Of a stretch of DNA of 64,000 nucleotides, positions 27,478 to 62,561 are shown piece after piece (positions within the stretch are counted from its first letter, which is position 1; every line of letters starts with the position of its first letter). The notes beneath the pieces are model-generated. The model did not search any database and was not told the origin of the DNA. It saw only the letters and a list, made by a program, of their open reading frames with translations. This stretch comes from Solimonas sp. K1W22B-7. GTDB taxonomy: Bacteria; Pseudomonadota; Gammaproteobacteria; Nevskiales; Nevskiaceae. The stretch spans positions 3,720,001 to 3,784,000 of the forward strand of contig NZ_CP031704.1 of NCBI RefSeq assembly GCF_003428335.1, read 5' to 3'. A program made the position numbers and the translations under genes.

Positions 27478-27490
27478 CTGCGTTGCAGAC

Positions 27491-27570
27491 AGATAGTGGA
27501 TAGTGGTTTGCAGATAGTAGAAAACGAAAAAAGCCCGCTGGAAGCGGGCTTTAACCACTATCTACTATCT
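27491..27570. repeat. Palindrome of 7-bp AGATAGT-type units enclosing a terminator, copy 1
   Basis: The arms 27491-27508 and 27553-27570 are 18-bp inverted repeats with one mismatch. They contain direct AGATAGTRG units; a further unit follows the left arm at 27511-27519. The same unit builds the palindrome at 59576-59647. The G+C-rich terminator hairpin of the sdh operon sits inside the loop. The A+T-rich composition contrasts with the surroundings. Confidence 0.75.
27530..27552 (-). terminator. Rho-independent terminator of the sdh-sdhE-ygfX operon
   Basis: On the minus strand the stem AAAGCCCGCT/AGCGGGCTTT (27552-27543 with 27539-27530) has a 3-nt loop and is followed by TTTTCGTTTTC. This is a strong intrinsic terminator 39 bp after the ygfX stop. 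The A-run upstream could let it work in both directions. Confidence 0.88.
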
Positions 27571-27590
27571 AAAAACTACGATCTGAGCCG

Positions 27591-55745: not shown

Positions 55746-56933
55746 ATGAGCCAGCAGGACAGCATCGTCATCACCGCCGCCGTACGCACCCCGATGGGTG
55801 GCATGCAGGGCATGTTCACTTCCGTCAGCGCCGCGCAGCTCGGTGCCACCGCGATCAAGGCCGCCGTCGAGCGCAGCGGCCTGCAGCCGGCCGACGTGCA
55901 GGAAGTGATCATGGGCTGCGTGCTGCCGGCCGGACAGGGCCAAGCCCCGGCACGCCAGGCCGTGCGCGGCGCCGGCCTGCCGGACGCCGCCGGCGCCACC
56001 ACCATCAACAAAGTCTGCGGCTCCGGCCTCAAGGCGGTGATGCTGGCCCATGACCTGGTCAAGGCCGGCAGCGCCGAGATCGTCGTCGCCGGCGGCATGG
56101 AGAGCATGACCAATGCGCCCCACCTGCTGACCAAGGCGCGCGGCGGCTACCGCTTCGGCCACGGCGAACTGCTCGACCACATGGCCCTCGACGGCCTGGA
56201 AGACGCCTACGAGAAGCGCACCGCCATGGGCGTGTTTGCCGAGCGCTGCGTCGACCAGTACAGCTTCACCCGCCAGGAGCAGGACGCTTTCGCGATCGAA
56301 TCGCTGCGCCGGGCCAAGGCCGCCAGCGAGAGCGGCGCCTTCGACTTCGAGATCGTGCCGGTGGAAGTGGCCGGCAAGGCCGGTCCCGAGAAGATCAGCC
56401 GCGACGAGCAGCCTTACAAGGCCAACCCGGACAAGATTCCGGGCCTGAAGCCGGCCTTCAAGAAGGACGGCACCATCACCGCCGCCAATGCCAGCTCGAT
56501 CTCCGACGGCGCCGCGGCGCTGGTGGTGATGAGTGGCGCGGAAGCCACGAAGCGCGGCATCACGCCGCTGGCGCGCATCGTCGCCCATGCGACCCACTCG
56601 CAGCTGCCGGCAGAGTTCACCACCGCCCCGGTGCAGGGTATCGCCAAGCTGCTGGCCAAGACCGGCTGGAAAGCCGGCGACGTGGATCTCTGGGAGATCA
56701 ACGAAGCCTTCGCCGTGGTCACCATGGCGGCGATGAAGGAACACAACCTGCCGCACGACAAGGTCAACATCCACGGCGGCGCCTGTGCCCTGGGTCACCC
56801 GATCGGCGCCAGCGGCGCACGCATCCTCACCACCCTGATCGGTGCCCTCAAGAAGACCGGCGGCAAGCGCGGCGTGGCCACGCTGTGCATCGGCGGCGGC
56901 GAGGCCGTGGCGCTGGCGGTCGAGATGCTCTGA
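55746..56933 (+). CDS. Acetyl-CoA C-acyltransferase (thiolase)
   Basis: The 395-residue thiolase has the acyl-enzyme Cys91 (INKVCGSGLKAV), the GGMESMTNAPHLL loop, the His of ALGHPIGASGARI and the general-acid Cys of TLCIGGG. Length fits a biosynthetic or degradative thiolase; the sequence alone does not separate acetoacetyl-CoA thiolase from a 3-ketoacyl-CoA thiolase. It is a single gene, with a terminator just after. Confidence 0.94.
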   Translation: MSQQDSIVITAAVRTPMGGMQGMFTSVSAAQLGATAIKAAVERSGLQPADVQEVIMGCVLPAGQGQAPARQAVRGAGLPDAAGATTINKVCGSGLKAVMLAHDLVKAGSAEIVVAGGMESMTNAPHLLTKARGGYRFGHGELLDHMALDGLEDAYEKRTAMGVFAERCVDQYSFTRQEQDAFAIESLRRAKAASESGAFDFEIVPVEVAGKAGPEKISRDEQPYKANPDKIPGLKPAFKKDGTITAANASSISDGAAALVVMSGAEATKRGITPLARIVAHATHSQLPAEFTTAPVQGIAKLLAKTGWKAGDVDLWEINEAFAVVTMAAMKEHNLPHDKVNIHGGACALGHPIGASGARILTTLIGALKKTGGKRGVATLCIGGGEAVALAVEML

Positions 56934-56956
56934 GTCGGCAGAAGCGGTATAAGAAC

Positions 56957-56980
56957 AGGGGCGGCCATAGAGCCGCCCCT
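56957..56980 (+). terminator. Rho-independent terminator of the thiolase gene
   Basis: AGGGGCGGC (56957-56965) pairs with GCCGCCCCT (56972-56980) and is followed by TTTCTTATTTC. It isolates the thiolase from the lipoprotein operon that starts 38 bp later. Confidence 0.9.
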
Positions 56981-57017
56981 TTCTTATTTCCGAGAAAGAA
57001 AACCGAGGAGACGAGGC

Positions 57018-58004
57018 ATGCGGACGAGGACCTGGCCGGCCCTGGCGGCGACCCTGTTGCTGGCGGCCTGCGGCGGCGACAGCGGCAGTGGCGGCAGCGA
57101 TGACGGCCGCAATGGCACGGTGGACCCGGCGACGCTCTGCGTCGACAGCAGTTGCGGCGAGAAGACCGTGTTGCTGACCATCCCCGACGCCGAGAACCTG
57201 CTGTTCTCCGCCGACGGCCGCCTGTTCGTCTCCGGCGGCACCAACGTCTACGAGATCACCCGCAGCGGCAACGAGTGGGCCGCCACCGCCCTGTACGACG
57301 GCAGCTGCAACTTCACCGGCCTGGCGATCCAGCGCAACACGCTTTACGCCAACTGCTTCGACGGCAAACTCTACGCCGCCAGGCTCACGGCGCAGCCGCA
57401 GCTGCAGGCGATCCACGACCTGGGCATCGCCGCGCCCAACGGCCTCAGCGACGGCCCGGGCCATACGCTATTCATGGCCAACGGCCCGTTCTCGCCCACC
57501 TCGCTGCCGAACCCGCAGCTGCGCCGGGTGACGCTGGACCCGGCCGATCCGCTGAAGGTGGTGGCCGAGGACCTGTGGACACGCGAGGGCCTGCTCGGCC
57601 CCAACGGCGTGCAGCGCAAGGACAACACGATCTACGTCAGCAACACCGGCCTCGGCGGCCTGGCCGAGCTGCGCGCCTACGACATCCAGGCCGACGGCAG
57701 CGCCGGCCCCGGGCGCCAGGTCGCCAGCTTCCTGAGCCTGCCGGACGACTTCAGCATCGTCGGCGACTCCTTCCTGGTGGCCGGCTTCGGCACCAGCCAG
57801 ATCGCGCTGATCGGCCCCGATGGCACGCTGACTTCCAGCACCAGCCTGCTGAGCTTCAGCTTCCCCTCGCAGGTGCGCGTCGGCCGGCCGCCGCTGTTCG
57901 CGCCGACCGATCTCGTGGTTACCGAGAAGGGCATCCTGGGCGACAATGTCTCCCCGATCGGCAACCGCCTGTCGGTGTTCCGCCGCAAAACACAGGCTCC
58001 ATGA
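57018..58004 (+). CDS. Beta-propeller lipoprotein (SMP-30-like fold)
   Basis: The 328-residue precursor has a lipobox LLLAAC (Cys18) and a Gly/Ser/Asp spacer. The body is a repeated beta-sheet pattern (LLFSADGRLFVSGGTNVYEIT, NTLYANCFDGKLYAA, NTIYVSNTGLGGLAELRAYDI), consistent with a six-bladed propeller such as SMP-30/gluconolactonase-like proteins. No catalytic metal set is certain. It is the first of three genes coupled by ATGA and GTGA overlaps. Confidence 0.78.
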   Translation: MRTRTWPALAATLLLAACGGDSGSGGSDDGRNGTVDPATLCVDSSCGEKTVLLTIPDAENLLFSADGRLFVSGGTNVYEITRSGNEWAATALYDGSCNFTGLAIQRNTLYANCFDGKLYAARLTAQPQLQAIHDLGIAAPNGLSDGPGHTLFMANGPFSPTSLPNPQLRRVTLDPADPLKVVAEDLWTREGLLGPNGVQRKDNTIYVSNTGLGGLAELRAYDIQADGSAGPGRQVASFLSLPDDFSIVGDSFLVAGFGTSQIALIGPDGTLTSSTSLLSFSFPSQVRVGRPPLFAPTDLVVTEKGILGDNVSPIGNRLSVFRRKTQAP

Positions 58005-58774
58005 TCAAGCGCACGCTCGAAGTCGGTACCTCGGTCCTCGCCAGCACCTTCGCCGCCTGGCGCGGCAGCATGACGCAGCGTCCCGCCGAGCGGCAGCCGC
58101 CCAAGCCGCTGGAGCTCTACGAGTTCGAGGCCTGCCCGTATTGCCGCCTGGTGCGCGAAGCGCTGACCGAGCTGGACCTGGACGCGATGATCTATCCCTG
58201 CCCCAGGAACGGAAAGCGCTTCCGCTCCAAGGTCCAAACCCTGGGCGGCAAGCAGCAGTATCCCTTCCTGGTGGACCCCAACACCGGCGCGCGGCTCTAC
58301 GAGGCCGCCGACATCGTCGCCTACCTCGGCAAGACCTACGGCGGCCCGGTGCGCAAGGCCACGGGCCTGCGCCGCCGCCTGATGGTGGGCAGCGCCATGG
58401 CCGCCACCGCGGCGCGCTCCTGGCGCGGACCGCGCGGCCTGAAGATGCGCGTGTCCAAGCCGGTGAAGAAGCCGCTGGAGCTGTACAGCTTCGAGTCCAG
58501 CCCGTACTCGCGGCTGGCGCGCGAGGTGCTGTGCGAACTGGAAATCCCCTACCTGCTGCGCAACACCGGCAAGGCCCGCATGAGCGACATGGGCCCACCG
58601 TCCTTCCGCGACCGCCTGTTCAAGGGTCCGAAGGACACCAGCCGCAACCGCAAGGCGCTGCTGGAGCGCACCGGGCACGTGCAGGTGCCGTACCTGATCG
58701 ATCCGAATACGCAGACCGAGATGTATGAGTCGGCGGCGATCGTGGACTACCTCGACCGGACCTACGCGGGGTGA
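58001..58774 (+). CDS. Protein with two GST-N/glutaredoxin-like domains
   Basis: This 257-residue protein holds a tandem of thioredoxin-fold, GST-N-type domains. The first has LELYEFEACPYCRLVREAL with a CPYC site (Cys45, Cys48). The second has LELYSFESSPYSRLAREVL, where both Cys are Ser (Ser167, Ser170). Each domain ends with a VPYL/YPFLVDPNT and YE(A/S)A-IVDYL pattern. A helical, basic linker joins them (about 115-155). No GST-C domain is present. The ATG overlaps the propeller-lipoprotein stop by 4 nt. Confidence 0.88.
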   Translation: MIKRTLEVGTSVLASTFAAWRGSMTQRPAERQPPKPLELYEFEACPYCRLVREALTELDLDAMIYPCPRNGKRFRSKVQTLGGKQQYPFLVDPNTGARLYEAADIVAYLGKTYGGPVRKATGLRRRLMVGSAMAATAARSWRGPRGLKMRVSKPVKKPLELYSFESSPYSRLAREVLCELEIPYLLRNTGKARMSDMGPPSFRDRLFKGPKDTSRNRKALLERTGHVQVPYLIDPNTQTEMYESAAIVDYLDRTYAG

Positions 58775-59580
58775 CCGGCTTCGCGCTCGATCCGGAACTC
58801 TCGCCCCACGCCGCCCTGCGCGGCGCGGCGCTGAGCGAGCTGGACCGGGCGCTGGCGGCGCTGCGCCGCGGCGACGCGCGCGGCGTTCACGAGACGCGCA
58901 AGAGCTGCAAGCGCCTGCGCGCCTGGAGCCGCCTGCTGCGCGACTTGCCGCTGCCGCGCGGGCATCGCGCCCGGCACATCAACGGCCTGCTGCGCGATGC
59001 CGGGCGTGCGCTGGCGGCGCCGCGGGAGGCGGCGGTGGCGCTGGACACCTTCGACGGGCTGGAGCGGCCGGGCACGCTGCCGGCGCCGGCCTGGCGCCAG
59101 CTCGGCGGGGCATTGCACAGCCAGGCCGAGGCACAGCGGCAGCTTGCCGCCGCCGCGCTGGCCGCTGCGGAGAAGGCGCTGGGCGAAGTCCGCGACCTGA
59201 TTGCGGCGCTGCCCGCCACTGCCCTGGGTCCGGCGGACCTGCGCCGCGGCCAGCGCAAGAGCTACAAGCGCGCCCGCAAGGCCTTCCGCCGCACGGCGAC
59301 AGGCGATGCCGAGGCGATGCATGAGTGGCGCAAGCGCGCCAAGCGGCTGGAGGCGATCCAGGAGCTGCTGGCGCCGCTGCTGAATCCGGAGCTGGTGCCC
59401 AGGCGCCTGGCCGAACTCACCGACCTGCTCGGGCAGCACCACGACCTGCACGAACTGCCGCTGCGGCCGGAGCTGGGGCCGGAGCAGCGCGAACTGCTGG
59501 AGCACGCGACCGAATCGCCGCGCAAGGCGCTGGAGCGGCGGCTGGAGCGGCGGGGGCGCGCGCTGTTCCAGCGCGGATAG
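58771..59580 (+). CDS. CHAD-domain protein
   Basis: The 269-residue helical protein has two CHAD repeats: VHETRKSCKRLRAWSRLLRD (residues about 40-59) and AMHEWRKRAKRLEAIQELL (about 189-207). The conserved His and Arg/Lys residues face one basic surface that in other CHAD proteins binds polyphosphate. The start is GTG, overlapping the preceding stop (GTGA). The stop codon TAG lies inside the AGATAGT-type palindrome. No CYTH domain is fused. Confidence 0.87.
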   Translation: MTGFALDPELSPHAALRGAALSELDRALAALRRGDARGVHETRKSCKRLRAWSRLLRDLPLPRGHRARHINGLLRDAGRALAAPREAAVALDTFDGLERPGTLPAPAWRQLGGALHSQAEAQRQLAAAALAAAEKALGEVRDLIAALPATALGPADLRRGQRKSYKRARKAFRRTATGDAEAMHEWRKRAKRLEAIQELLAPLLNPELVPRRLAELTDLLGQHHDLHELPLRPELGPEQRELLEHATESPRKALERRLERRGRALFQRG

Positions 59581-59647
59581 TAGTTGGTAGATAGTAGATA
59601 GTAGAAAAAGCAGCGCGCTCGACAACTACTATCTACAAACTACTATC
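59576..59647. repeat. Palindrome of 7-bp AGATAGT-type units, copy 2
   Basis: The arms 59576-59597 and 59626-59647 are 22-bp inverted repeats with one mismatch. The sequence GTAGATAGTAGATAGTAG shares its units with the palindrome at 27491-27570. The left arm contributes the CHAD stop codon. It lies between convergent CHAD and acyl-CoA ligase genes and is sharply A+T-rich against the local background. Confidence 0.78.
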
Positions 59648-59660
59648 GACTATCTGGCTT

Positions 59661-61307
59661 CTACGCCTCCCAGGCCAGCTTGCTCCGCGTCTCCGCTTCC
59701 TTCTGGATCAGCGGCATGTAGCGGTCTTCCACCACGTTGCGCTTCACCTTCATGGTGGGCGTCATCATGTTGTTGTCGATGGTCCAGGTCTCCTTCACCA
59801 CCAGGATCTTGGCGATCTCCTCGTGCGGCTCCAGGGTCTTGTTGACCTCTTCCATGTCGGCGACCAGCTGCTTGCCCACTTCATCGCGCGGTTTCTTCAA
59901 GGCGTCCGGCAGCAGCGTCACCACCATGATCGGCTGCTTCAGGCCGGTGCCGACGAAACACATCTGGTCGATGTCGGTGTTGCGCGCCATCGCGCCTTCG
60001 ATCGGGCCCGGGGCGACGTACTTGCCCTTCAGGGTCTTGAAGATGTCCTTCACGCGGCCGGTGATGTAGAGGTAGCCGTCGGGATCGACCTTGCCCTTGT
60101 CGCCGGTGCGCAGCCAGCCGTCCTCGGTGAAGGTTTCCTTGGTTTTTTCCGGTTCCTTGTAGTAGCCGGCCATCACGCCGGCGTGCTTGAACAGGATCTC
60201 GCCCTGGTCCGACAGCTTCATGTTGGCGCCGGGCATCGGCCGGCCGACCGAGCCGATGCGGTTGGCACCCGGCAGGTTGGCGGTGGCGTAGATGTTGTTC
60301 TCGGTCATGCCGTAGCCCTGCAGTACGGTGATGCCGAGCTTCTCGAACCAGTTCAGCAGCGGGATCGGCATCGGTGCCGCGCCGACGAACAGGTAGCGCG
60401 CGTTGTGCAGGCCGGCGCCCTGCTTGATCTTGCGCCTGACGATGCCGGAGATGATCGGGAGCTTGAGCAGCTTGTCGAGCTTCTGCTGCGGCATCTTCTT
60501 GAGCACGCCGGTCTGGATGCGGCCGTAGACCAGGGGCACGCCGAAGAAGCGCGTCGGCGCCACTTCCTTGAGCTGCTCGGCCAGCTTCTCGATGTTCTCG
60601 AGGAAGTAGACCTCGGCACCGAAGTAGATGCTGGCCACTTCCAGCGCGCCGCGCTCGAAGGCATGCGCCAGCGGCAGGTAGGAGAAGAAACGCTCCTGGC
60701 CACGTGCCGGCATCGCCTTCATCAGGCCGGCGGCGGCGAAGGCGAGGTTCTCGCCGGTGATCATCACGCCCTTGGGATTGCCGGTGGTGCCCGAGGTGTA
60801 GATCAGCGTCCACAGGTCCTTGGGATCGGGCGGCTGGTAGCCGCTCATCGGCTCATGGGCCTTGACCAGTGCGTCCCAGGCCAGCGCGCCCTGGGGCACG
60901 TCCGGATAGGGGAAGGTGATCTGGTCGATGCCGGACGGCACCGCGTCGAGGAATTCCTGCAGGTCCATCGAGGGCCCGACGAACAGTGCCTTGGCCTCGC
61001 AGTGGCTGAGGATGTACTTCACCGCATCGACCGACTGCTTGGGATACAGGCCGACGCTGATGCAGCCGGCCATGGCGATGGCCAGATCCGCCATGAACCA
61101 GTGGGCGGTGTTGCGGCCGGAGATCGCGATCGCGGTACCGGGGGCATAGCGTGCCTTCAGCGCGGTGGCGATGGAGCGCACCTGTGCGGCGGCCTGCCCC
61201 CAGGTGATGCCCTGCCATTCGCCATGCAGCGGCTGGAACAGCCAGGGCTGGGTCGGCCGCTCCTGCTCCCAATGCAGCAGCATCTCGACCGGGTTCCTCG
61301 TCGTCAT
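59661..61307 (-). CDS. AMP-binding long-chain acyl-CoA synthetase
   Basis: The 548-residue ligase has the adenylation P-loop LIYTSGTTGNPKG, the acyl-adenylate motif GYGMTENN, the DGWLRTGDKGKVDPDGYLYITGR hinge region and KYVAPGPIEGAMA, typical of FadD-type ligases. The end of the domain has MMTPTMKVKRNVV, carrying the catalytic Lys. It should activate fatty acids with ATP and CoA. It is convergent with the CHAD gene and divergent from the SMP-30-like gene. Confidence 0.93.
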   Translation of the reverse strand: MTTRNPVEMLLHWEQERPTQPWLFQPLHGEWQGITWGQAAAQVRSIATALKARYAPGTAIAISGRNTAHWFMADLAIAMAGCISVGLYPKQSVDAVKYILSHCEAKALFVGPSMDLQEFLDAVPSGIDQITFPYPDVPQGALAWDALVKAHEPMSGYQPPDPKDLWTLIYTSGTTGNPKGVMITGENLAFAAAGLMKAMPARGQERFFSYLPLAHAFERGALEVASIYFGAEVYFLENIEKLAEQLKEVAPTRFFGVPLVYGRIQTGVLKKMPQQKLDKLLKLPIISGIVRRKIKQGAGLHNARYLFVGAAPMPIPLLNWFEKLGITVLQGYGMTENNIYATANLPGANRIGSVGRPMPGANMKLSDQGEILFKHAGVMAGYYKEPEKTKETFTEDGWLRTGDKGKVDPDGYLYITGRVKDIFKTLKGKYVAPGPIEGAMARNTDIDQMCFVGTGLKQPIMVVTLLPDALKKPRDEVGKQLVADMEEVNKTLEPHEEIAKILVVKETWTIDNNMMTPTMKVKRNVVEDRYMPLIQKEAETRSKLAWEA

Positions 61308-61499
61308 TTTTCTTTCCCCTGATATAGATCGTTATGGCCTCGGGCAACGGGGCCCGGGCAGCACTGGGACGAGTGTAGCCAAAGCGGCCCTTTCGGAGAC
61401 AGGGCCGTGGAGACAACCGGGCTTTTATTACCAGTCCCGGGCGGCTTTGCCGCAGAATCGGCGACATTCGACACCATTCCGGGGAAGGAGACCCAAAAA

Positions 61500-62561
61500 A
61501 TGAAAAAACTGCTGCTGGTCGCGTTCGTGCTGCTCGCCCTGGTCGCCTGGGCCGCCCTGGCCCCCTCGCCGATCAACCCCCAGGCCTGGCGCCCGGCCAA
61601 GGCCCCCGCCCTGGAAGGCGTCTACGCCCGCAACGACATCCTGCGGGGCATCCAGAAGCTGGCGCTGGGCGCCGGCAACGGTCCGGAAGGCGTGGCCCTG
61701 GACCGCGAAGGCCGGGTCTATGCCGGATACCTGGACGGCCGCATCGTCCGCCTGGACCCCGGGACGGGCAAGCTGGAGGAGCTGGGCAATACCGGCGGGC
61801 GCCCGCTGGGCATCGCGATCGGGCCGGCCGGCGAGCTCTATGCCGCCGACGCGGACCAGGGCCTGGTGCAGATCGAGAATGGCCAGATGAAGGTGTTGTC
61901 GACCTCGGCCGGCGGCAAGGCTTTCCGTTTCGTCGATGACGTCGAGGTTTCGGCCGACGGCAACTCGCTGTACTTCTCCGACGCCTCGGCGCGCTTCGGC
62001 ATCCACGACCTGATGAAGGACGTGCTGGAACACGGCGGCACCGGACGCGTGCTGCGCTACGACCGCTCGACCGGCGAGACCACCGTGCTGAAGGACGGCC
62101 TGTACTTCCCCAACGGCGTGGCCCTGGGCCCCAACGAGGACTACCTGCTGTTCGACGAGACCGCGCGCTACCAGGTCAGCCGGCTGTGGCTCAAGGGCGA
62201 GAAGGCCGGCACCGTGGAGGTCCTGATCGACAACCTGCCGGGCTTCCCCGACAACCTCAGCTTCAACGGCAGCGATCGCATCTGGGTCGCGATCTACGCC
62301 CCGCGCTCACCAGACCTGGACCGCCTGCTGCCCTACCCGGGCCTGCGCAGGATCGTGGAGCGCCTGCCGGAATGGACGCAGCCCAAGCCGAAGATGCAAT
62401 CCTTCGCGCTGGCCCTGGACCTGGACGGCAAGGTGGTGCAGAACCTGCAGTACGACGGTCCCGGGGCCTACGCGCCGATCACCAGCGTGGAGCAGCGCGG
62501 CGAGTGGCTGTACTTCGGCAGCCTGTCGCATCCGGCCTTCGGGCGCATGAAGACGCCCTGA
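61500..62561 (+). CDS. SMP-30/strictosidine-synthase-like (APMAP-type) propeller protein
   Basis: The 353-residue protein starts MKKLLLVAFVLLALVAWAAL, a signal anchor or signal peptide; GGAGA precedes the ATG at about 9 nt. The propeller has GNGPEGVALDREGRVYAGY, FVDDVEVSADGNSLYFSD, YFPNGVALGPNEDYLLFDE and LPGFPDNLSFNGSDRIWVAI. This matches the strictosidine synthase-like/APMAP subgroup of N6P lactonase-type proteins. Enzyme activity in bacteria is mostly undefined. It precedes a glycosyltransferase gene by 11 bp. Confidence 0.87.
   Translation: MKKLLLVAFVLLALVAWAALAPSPINPQAWRPAKAPALEGVYARNDILRGIQKLALGAGNGPEGVALDREGRVYAGYLDGRIVRLDPGTGKLEELGNTGGRPLGIAIGPAGELYAADADQGLVQIENGQMKVLSTSAGGKAFRFVDDVEVSADGNSLYFSDASARFGIHDLMKDVLEHGGTGRVLRYDRSTGETTVLKDGLYFPNGVALGPNEDYLLFDETARYQVSRLWLKGEKAGTVEVLIDNLPGFPDNLSFNGSDRIWVAIYAPRSPDLDRLLPYPGLRRIVERLPEWTQPKPKMQSFALALDLDGKVVQNLQYDGPGAYAPITSVEQRGEWLYFGSLSHPAFGRMKTP

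What the first reader, a model, noticed from the sequence alone, without database searches (positions are those of the whole stretch)
57018..59580. Coupled trio: propeller lipoprotein, double GST-N protein, CHAD protein
Overlaps of ATGA and GTGA tie the three genes. One GST-N domain keeps CPYC and the other is SPYS, so one is redox-competent and one is probably structural. CHAD proteins bind polyphosphate. The trio may link envelope, thiol and polyphosphate biology.
Basis: partly seen in the sequence, partly recalled or inferred. Interest (0 to 1): 0.55.

Follow-up and report, generated by a model that had tools for sequence, protein, structure and literature searches.

The report
GST2N–CHAD gene pair behind lipoprotein gene
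Three overlapping genes in a Solimonas-like bacterium are real, but they look like two separately inherited gene pairs that came to lie side by side, so the neat envelope–thiol–polyphosphate trio is mostly a local arrangement of known kinds of protein.

Summary
The trio is there as described: lipoprotein (57018-58004), double GST-N protein (58001-58774) and CHAD protein (58771-59580), joined by ATGA and GTGA overlaps, all under purifying selection. The CHAD assignment is solid (Pfam 8e-24; model matches solved CHAD domains at Z 19-20.5; 9 of 12 polyphosphate-site positions kept).

The joint reading is weak. The three genes are contiguous in 4 of 4 genomes of the genus; I saw this nowhere else. 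In the family the lipoprotein's partner is the upstream thiolase (12 of 14 genomes, two of them with remnants). The GST–CHAD pair is conserved on its own (9 of 25 family genomes with both genes). Two relatives carry both pairs on different contigs, one with a degraded lipoprotein gene.

The redox argument fails as stated: in 77 homologues the first Cys of CPYC is Ser in 30, while Cys48 (77/77) and Cys67 (76/77) are kept. The Ser of the second domain is invariant, and Ser is the active-site residue of most GSTs, so "structural" does not follow. The protein has the architecture of the plant class GST2N. What may be new is a lineage-restricted GST2N–CHAD pair that my paper searches did not find described.

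The parts
57018..58004 (+). Lipoprotein gene (328 aa, lipobox LAAC), probable NHL/SMP-30-like beta-propeller, function unknown
   Evidence: (Cys18 invariant in 22); no Pfam family over cut-off
58001..58774 (+). Double GST N-terminal domain protein (257 aa), GST2N architecture; CPYC at aa 45-48, PCP Cys67, SPYS at aa 167-170
   Evidence: GST_N_3 twice; 77 homologues; model pLDDT 91.1, pTM 0.90; internal duplication 35% identity, E 6e-26
58771..59580 (+). CHAD protein (269 aa, GTG start), predicted polyphosphate-binding
   Evidence: PF05235 8e-24; model pLDDT 89.7; 6qv5 Z 20.5, 6qva Z 19.6; residue mapping
55746..56933 (+). Acetyl-CoA acetyltransferase-type thiolase gene, the conserved upstream partner of the lipoprotein in the family
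   Evidence: Thiolase_N 3.8e-88; neighbour in 12 of 14 family genomes with a lipoprotein match
56957..56980 (+). Terminator-like hairpin (9 pairs, 8 of them G-C, then UUUCUUAUUU) between thiolase and lipoprotein
   Evidence: (fold of 56935-57010: -33.2 kcal/mol, z -5.06)
59578..59652 (.). Palindromic TAGTAGATAGTAG-type element just after the CHAD gene; related sequences at other places in the genome
   Evidence: (fold of 59578-59665, z -4.30)

Best explanation
The trio is a transcription unit special to one Solimonas-type genus, made by placing two older gene pairs end to end: [thiolase + exported propeller lipoprotein] and [GST2N + CHAD]. The CHAD protein most likely binds polyphosphate in the cytoplasm. 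The GST2N protein, a duplicated GST-N unit without the GST C-terminal domain, most likely binds glutathione at one or both domains and does glutathione-linked thiol chemistry that rests on Cys48 and Cys67 rather than on a CPYC dithiol. GST2N and CHAD are co-expressed through overlapping or nearly abutting genes, plausibly as a stress-response pair. The lipoprotein acts in another compartment and is probably unrelated in function. Shown: gene content, overlaps, the two separately conserved pairs, residue conservation, CHAD fold. Inferred: ligand binding, co-expression, compartment, physiological role.
For: Trio contiguous in 4 of 4 genomes of the genus. Thiolase next to lipoprotein in 12 of 14 family genomes with a lipoprotein match (10 intact, 2 remnants: G024, G031), including G035 and G031, where GST2N–CHAD sits on another contig. 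GST2N and CHAD adjacent in 9 of 25 family genomes with both genes, in 3 genera, and in two Sinimarinibacterium records. Their CHADs fall together on the tree more than chance (2 label changes against 7.9 in shuffles, 0 of 500 as low). Terminator-like hairpin before the lipoprotein. Cys48 77/77, Cys67 76/77, Cys45 46/77, Ser167 77/77. CHAD fold Z 19-20.5 against 11.7 for the first non-CHAD chain.
Against: Overlapping genes in the genus do predict joint translation of all three, so selection for co-expression cannot be excluded. No sigma-70-like promoter was seen between the hairpin and the lipoprotein, so the hairpin may be leaky or an attenuator and the unit may include the thiolase. Outside the family the thiolase link is absent too (0 of 10 genomes with a lipoprotein match), and two of 14 family genomes lack it (G015, G030). 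Adjacency-based reasoning does not show function. CHAD evolves fast and 3 of 12 mapped polyphosphate-site positions are lost (E194, A195, A214). The grouping of pair CHADs has weak support (82/79).
Confidence: 0.6

Rival explanations
1. The trio is one functional module: an envelope sensor lipoprotein, a thiol redox protein and a polyphosphate-binding protein that work together in stress.
For: 4-base overlaps join all three genes in the window and in one congener; the order is kept in 4 of 4 genomes of the genus. A terminator-like hairpin cuts the unit off from the thiolase.
Against: The three are together nowhere else that I examined; the lipoprotein keeps with the thiolase in 12 of 14 family genomes; G035 has both pairs apart; the lipoprotein/GST overlap is missing in 2 of 4 congeners.
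Confidence: 0.12
2. GST2N–CHAD is a true two-protein system: CHAD tethers a glutathione-dependent thiol protein to polyphosphate granules.
For: The pair is kept in at least 3 genera and Sinimarinibacterium although CHAD identity falls to 36-40%; pair CHADs cluster on the tree.
Against: 16 of 25 family genomes with both genes do not have them adjacent (some on broken contigs); co-occurrence is as expected; the pair was not seen outside this lineage among 80 named loci (6 of 80 have it, all of this lineage), with the caveat that my CHAD profile was built from 8 sequences.
Confidence: 0.18
3. Chance adjacency of unrelated genes in a compact genome, with overlaps of the ordinary operon kind.
For: Gene neighbours of GST2N differ widely between relatives: LysE/RhtB-type, purH, glyoxalase-like and others (these names are recalled from the sequences, except where Pfam was run).
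Against: GST2N–CHAD adjacency persists over deep divergence and its CHADs cluster, which is more than one accident but could be simple inheritance.
Confidence: 0.25

Closest known systems
GST2N class (plant glutathione transferases with two GST-N/thioredoxin domains)
   Same: Two GST-N repeats and no GST C-terminal domain, as defined in PMC5000609 (passages seen) and PMC9937507 (one passage seen)
   Different: Bacterial, 257 aa against 336-338 aa for the Brassica oleracea proteins; next to a CHAD gene. No plant sequence was compared here. The CDD name GST_N_2GST_N and Arabidopsis At5g03880 are recalled, not tested.
CHAD domain proteins (PF05235; CtCHAD 6QV7/6QVA, RcCHAD 6QV5, PptA 6RN5)
   Same: Fold over the whole length (Z 19-20.5), H40/R43/K47 motif and R85 matching residues mutated in CtCHAD
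   Different: Stand-alone CHAD with no CYTH domain, not beside ppk; E194, A195 and A214 replace R418, Y419 and K441 of CtCHAD
Acidithiobacillus folD–ppk–parA–CHAD cluster (PMC10892726, passages seen)
   Same: A conserved stand-alone gene neighbourhood with CHAD
   Different: There CHAD sits with PPK1; here the only PPK1 match is at G000:C1:250072, against about 3778800 for CHAD
NHL-type beta-propellers (PknD sensor domain 1RWI)
   Same: Family profile match 1.3e-6 over profile positions 64-157
   Different: Lipid-anchored, no kinase; no Pfam family over cut-off

Membership tests
CHAD (PF05235) | Pfam profile over its curated cut-off | tested here: met
   85.3 bits against 25.6
CHAD (PF05235) | Two four-helix bundles as in solved CHAD domains | tested here: met
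   Model pLDDT 89.7; 6qv5 Z 20.5, rmsd 2.9, 259 aligned; 6qva Z 19.6, rmsd 3.4, 265 aligned
CHAD (PF05235) | Basic residues and His of the polyphosphate site (12 CtCHAD positions mutated in PMC6537752) | tested here: met
   9 of 12 kept or conservatively replaced: H40, R43, K47, R85, R162, K163, K166, R167, R211; not kept: E194, A195, A214 (hand mapping; met in the main, not fully)
CHAD (PF05235) | Binding of polyphosphate | not testable with these tools
   Needs protein
GST2N | Two GST-N repeats | tested here: met
   Two GST_N_3 stretches; halves align at 35% identity, E 6e-26, profile-profile 2.3e-37
GST2N | No GST C-terminal domain | tested here: met
   No GST_C family; model elements are two thioredoxin-type units, each preceded by a helix
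GST2N | Sequence kinship to plant members | not tested
   No plant sequences were available
Dithiol glutaredoxin (CPYC) | Conserved N-terminal nucleophilic Cys of CxxC | tested here: not met
   Present in the window, but Ser in 30 and Asn in 1 of 77 homologues
Canonical cytosolic GST | GST-N fold with kept cis-Pro and Glu-Ser of the glutathione site (residue roles recalled) | tested here: met
   P88 77/77, P230 77/77, E101 74/77, E243 76/77, S244 76/77; but residue 102 is Ala in the window (Ser in 74/77). Best structural matches are GSTs and SspA at Z 7.4-8.2, middling, over about one domain
Canonical cytosolic GST | All-helical C-terminal domain with substrate site | tested here: not met
   Absent
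Lipoprotein | Lipobox Cys after a signal peptide | tested here: met
   LAAC, Cys18 invariant in 22; no dedicated signal-peptide program was run
NHL/SMP-30-like beta-propeller | Propeller fold | tested here: inconclusive
   Weak NHL matches in 11 of 22, PknD 1.3e-6; not modelled

The most novel reading that the evidence does not exclude
GST2N and CHAD form a two-protein unit in which the CHAD protein recruits a duplicated glutathione-binding protein to polyphosphate, coupling the glutathione pool to polyphosphate stores; the conserved Cys48/Cys67 pair would be the working thiols, and in the Solimonas genus the unit has been put under control of an envelope-lipoprotein operon.
Probability: 0.12. 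Interest if true: 0.55.

Novelty: new member of a known kind. Interest (0 to 1): 0.27.

Why it matters
Double-GST-N proteins are named but functionally obscure; PMC5000609 lists the pathway of its GST2N genes as not available (table passage). A bacterial lineage where one is kept beside a polyphosphate-binding CHAD gene gives a simple handle for testing what they do. The result also warns against reading a function from three overlapping genes: here comparison splits them into two histories, and against calling a CPYC motif redox-active from a single sequence.

Tried and rejected
Rejected: (1) trio as an ancient module. (2) CPYC dithiol as the conserved chemistry. (3) A ppk neighbourhood: the only PP_kinase match in the genome is far from CHAD. 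(4) Co-occurrence of GST2N and CHAD: 25 of 58 observed against 25.9 expected, my arithmetic. (5) Premature stop in a lipoprotein paralogue (1 TAG in the match at G000:C1:1758588): the locus holds an open frame of 374 aa that ends there, so I make no such claim.

Led nowhere: viral structure library for the GST2N model (0 matches at E <= 0.001); paper searches for GST_N_2GST_N (0 papers), At5g03880 (6 papers, listing only), tandem GST_N terms, CHAD with glutathione (2 papers, listing only), CHAD/GST/operon (6 papers, listing), Solimonas with polyphosphate (2 papers, listing only). The distance between Cys48 and Cys67 could not be measured because model coordinates were not in the Python box.

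Limits: my gene caller is home-made and missed some genes (for example CHAD in L075/L093 and GST2N in 3 of 41 loci). Broken contigs hide adjacency. Of 80 GST2N loci, 4 (L104, L122, L137, L139) were dropped because the match span held a stop. The partial CHAD of G023 was left out of the tree, and G347 and G348 were found later and are not in it. In the alphabet of terminators, 4 were found in the scanned region against 1.9 expected (sd 1.5), so only the fold energy singles out 56957-56980. No genome row beyond the listed 61, 58 and 274 was examined for GST2N.

Full report
What is there. The window lies at G000:C1:3720001-3784000 of a single-contig genome of 5373342 bases. Three genes run on the + strand: 57018-58004, 58001-58774 and 58771-59580, with ATGA and GTGA overlaps. 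Pfam gives GST_N_3 twice for the second (2.2e-32) and CHAD for the third (8e-24); the first reaches no family cut-off. dN/dS against three congeners is below 0.55 for all three.

Conservation of the trio. In 61 relatives, GST2N has a match in 54 (E <= 0.001, some partial), the CHAD protein by single-sequence search in 18, CHAD by Pfam profile in 29, and the lipoprotein in 24. The three are contiguous in G000, G001, G002 and G003, which are 4 of 4 genomes of the genus in the search, and in none of the others by coordinates. In these four the GST/CHAD overlap is always there; the lipoprotein/GST overlap is there in two, and about 9 nt separate the genes in the other two.

The lipoprotein belongs with the thiolase. 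In the family, 14 genomes have a lipoprotein match; in 12 it lies directly downstream of, and on the same strand as, the orthologue of thiolase 55746-56933: G000-G003, G006, G011, G014, G022, G025 and G035 intact, G024 and G031 as short remnants. It is not so in G015 and G030, nor in 0 of 10 genomes outside the family (for G040 and G043 no thiolase passed the 1e-150 limit that I set). The gap between match ends is 5-41 nt in the six intact non-congeners and 87-92 nt in the genus. In the window this spacer carries a terminator-like hairpin at 56957-56980 (fold z -5.06). No promoter-like site was found there.

GST2N belongs with CHAD in part of the family. In all 58 family genomes held, GST2N is in 50 (E <= 1e-40) and CHAD in 30; 25 have both, and in 9 the two are neighbours: G000-G003, G009, G031, G035, G347, G348. 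The expected overlap without association is 25.9 (my arithmetic), so there is no co-occurrence signal. A tree of 29 CHAD domains puts 8 of 9 pair CHADs in one group (support 82/79, weak), with 2 label changes against 7.9 in shuffles. In other relatives GST2N has other neighbours. G035 and G031 have both pairs but on different contigs. So the trio is best read as two blocks placed end to end in one genus.

GST2N. The two halves align over their whole length, helix included (35% identity, E 6e-26; profile-profile 2.3e-37), so the protein is a tandem duplication of a helix-plus-GST-N unit; the second copy has an insertion of about 20 residues. The model is confident (pLDDT 91.1, pTM 0.90). Structure matches are GSTs and an SspA homologue at Z 7.4-8.2 over about one domain, which the tool calls middling. 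In 77 homologues Cys48 is 77/77, Cys67 76/77, Cys45 46/77 (Ser 30, Asn 1), Ser167 77/77, Ser170 60/77, P88 and P230 77/77. So the conserved thiols are Cys48 and Cys67, not the CPYC pair. In most GST classes the active residue is Ser and in some it is Cys (PMC5000609, passages seen), which fits Ser/Cys exchange at residue 45 and a fixed Ser at 167. An evenly drawn sample of 274 genomes of the class has full-length matches (E < 1e-80) in 10; the other matches are weaker, mostly one domain. Plants have the same architecture as class GST2N (PMC5000609, PMC6591421 and PMC9937507, passages seen).

CHAD. The model (pLDDT 89.7) matches RcCHAD 6qv5 at Z 20.5, CtCHAD with polyphosphate 6qva at 19.6, PptA 6rn5 at 19.4 and ygiF 5a60 at 13.8; the next chain is at 11.7. 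From the printed alignments I mapped the CtCHAD residues mutated in PMC6537752 (abstract and passages seen): H253, R256, R260, R296, R385, K386, K389, K390 and R438 correspond to H40, R43, K47, R85, R162, K163, K166, R167 and R211; R418, Y419 and K441 correspond to E194, A195 and A214. PPK1 occurs once in the genome, at 250072, so polyphosphate synthesis is possible.

Lipoprotein. Cys18 of the lipobox and Cys41/Cys46 are invariant in 22 homologues. NHL repeats match weakly in 11 of 22; the profile matches PknD at 1.3e-6 and gluconolactonases weakly. A metal site of the SMP-30 type (E59, N141, N196, D243 invariant) is a guess from recalled residue roles.

Verdict. The proposal that the trio links three kinds of biology is not supported beyond one genus. 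A GST2N–CHAD pair kept in one lineage is the part worth a bench test. My searches for a description of it (and on GST2N) found none in the held library; papers of subscription journals are mostly missing there.

Noticed in passing
window 59578-59652 and 27487-27583; G000:C1:1958086, 2327389, 1036912: A palindromic element rich in TAGTAGATAGTAG lies between the convergent CHAD and acyl-CoA-ligase genes. DNA similarity finds it at 4 places in the genome and the 13-base pattern with 1 mismatch at one more; the reversed-pattern control gave 0. Its nature is unexplained.
   Followed up: partly
window 61407-62561: A strictosidine-synthase/SMP-30-like propeller gene (Pfam Str_synth 3e-24) lies just beyond the acyl-CoA ligase; it follows the same trio in 4 of 4 genomes of the genus.
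   Followed up: no
G000:C1:1758588-1759562 and 5319157-5320146: Two further paralogues of the lipoprotein (46% and 43% identity) in the same genome, in other neighbourhoods.
   Followed up: partly
L123 (Solimonas soli, G024:C5:177211-177867): GST2N matches in two pieces within one 234-aa open frame, so the middle part seems shortened.
   Followed up: no
GST2N loci of the family: purH- and fis-like genes and a LysE/RhtB-type gene recur near GST2N in several genera, which may be the older neighbourhood of GST2N (names from recall).
   Followed up: no
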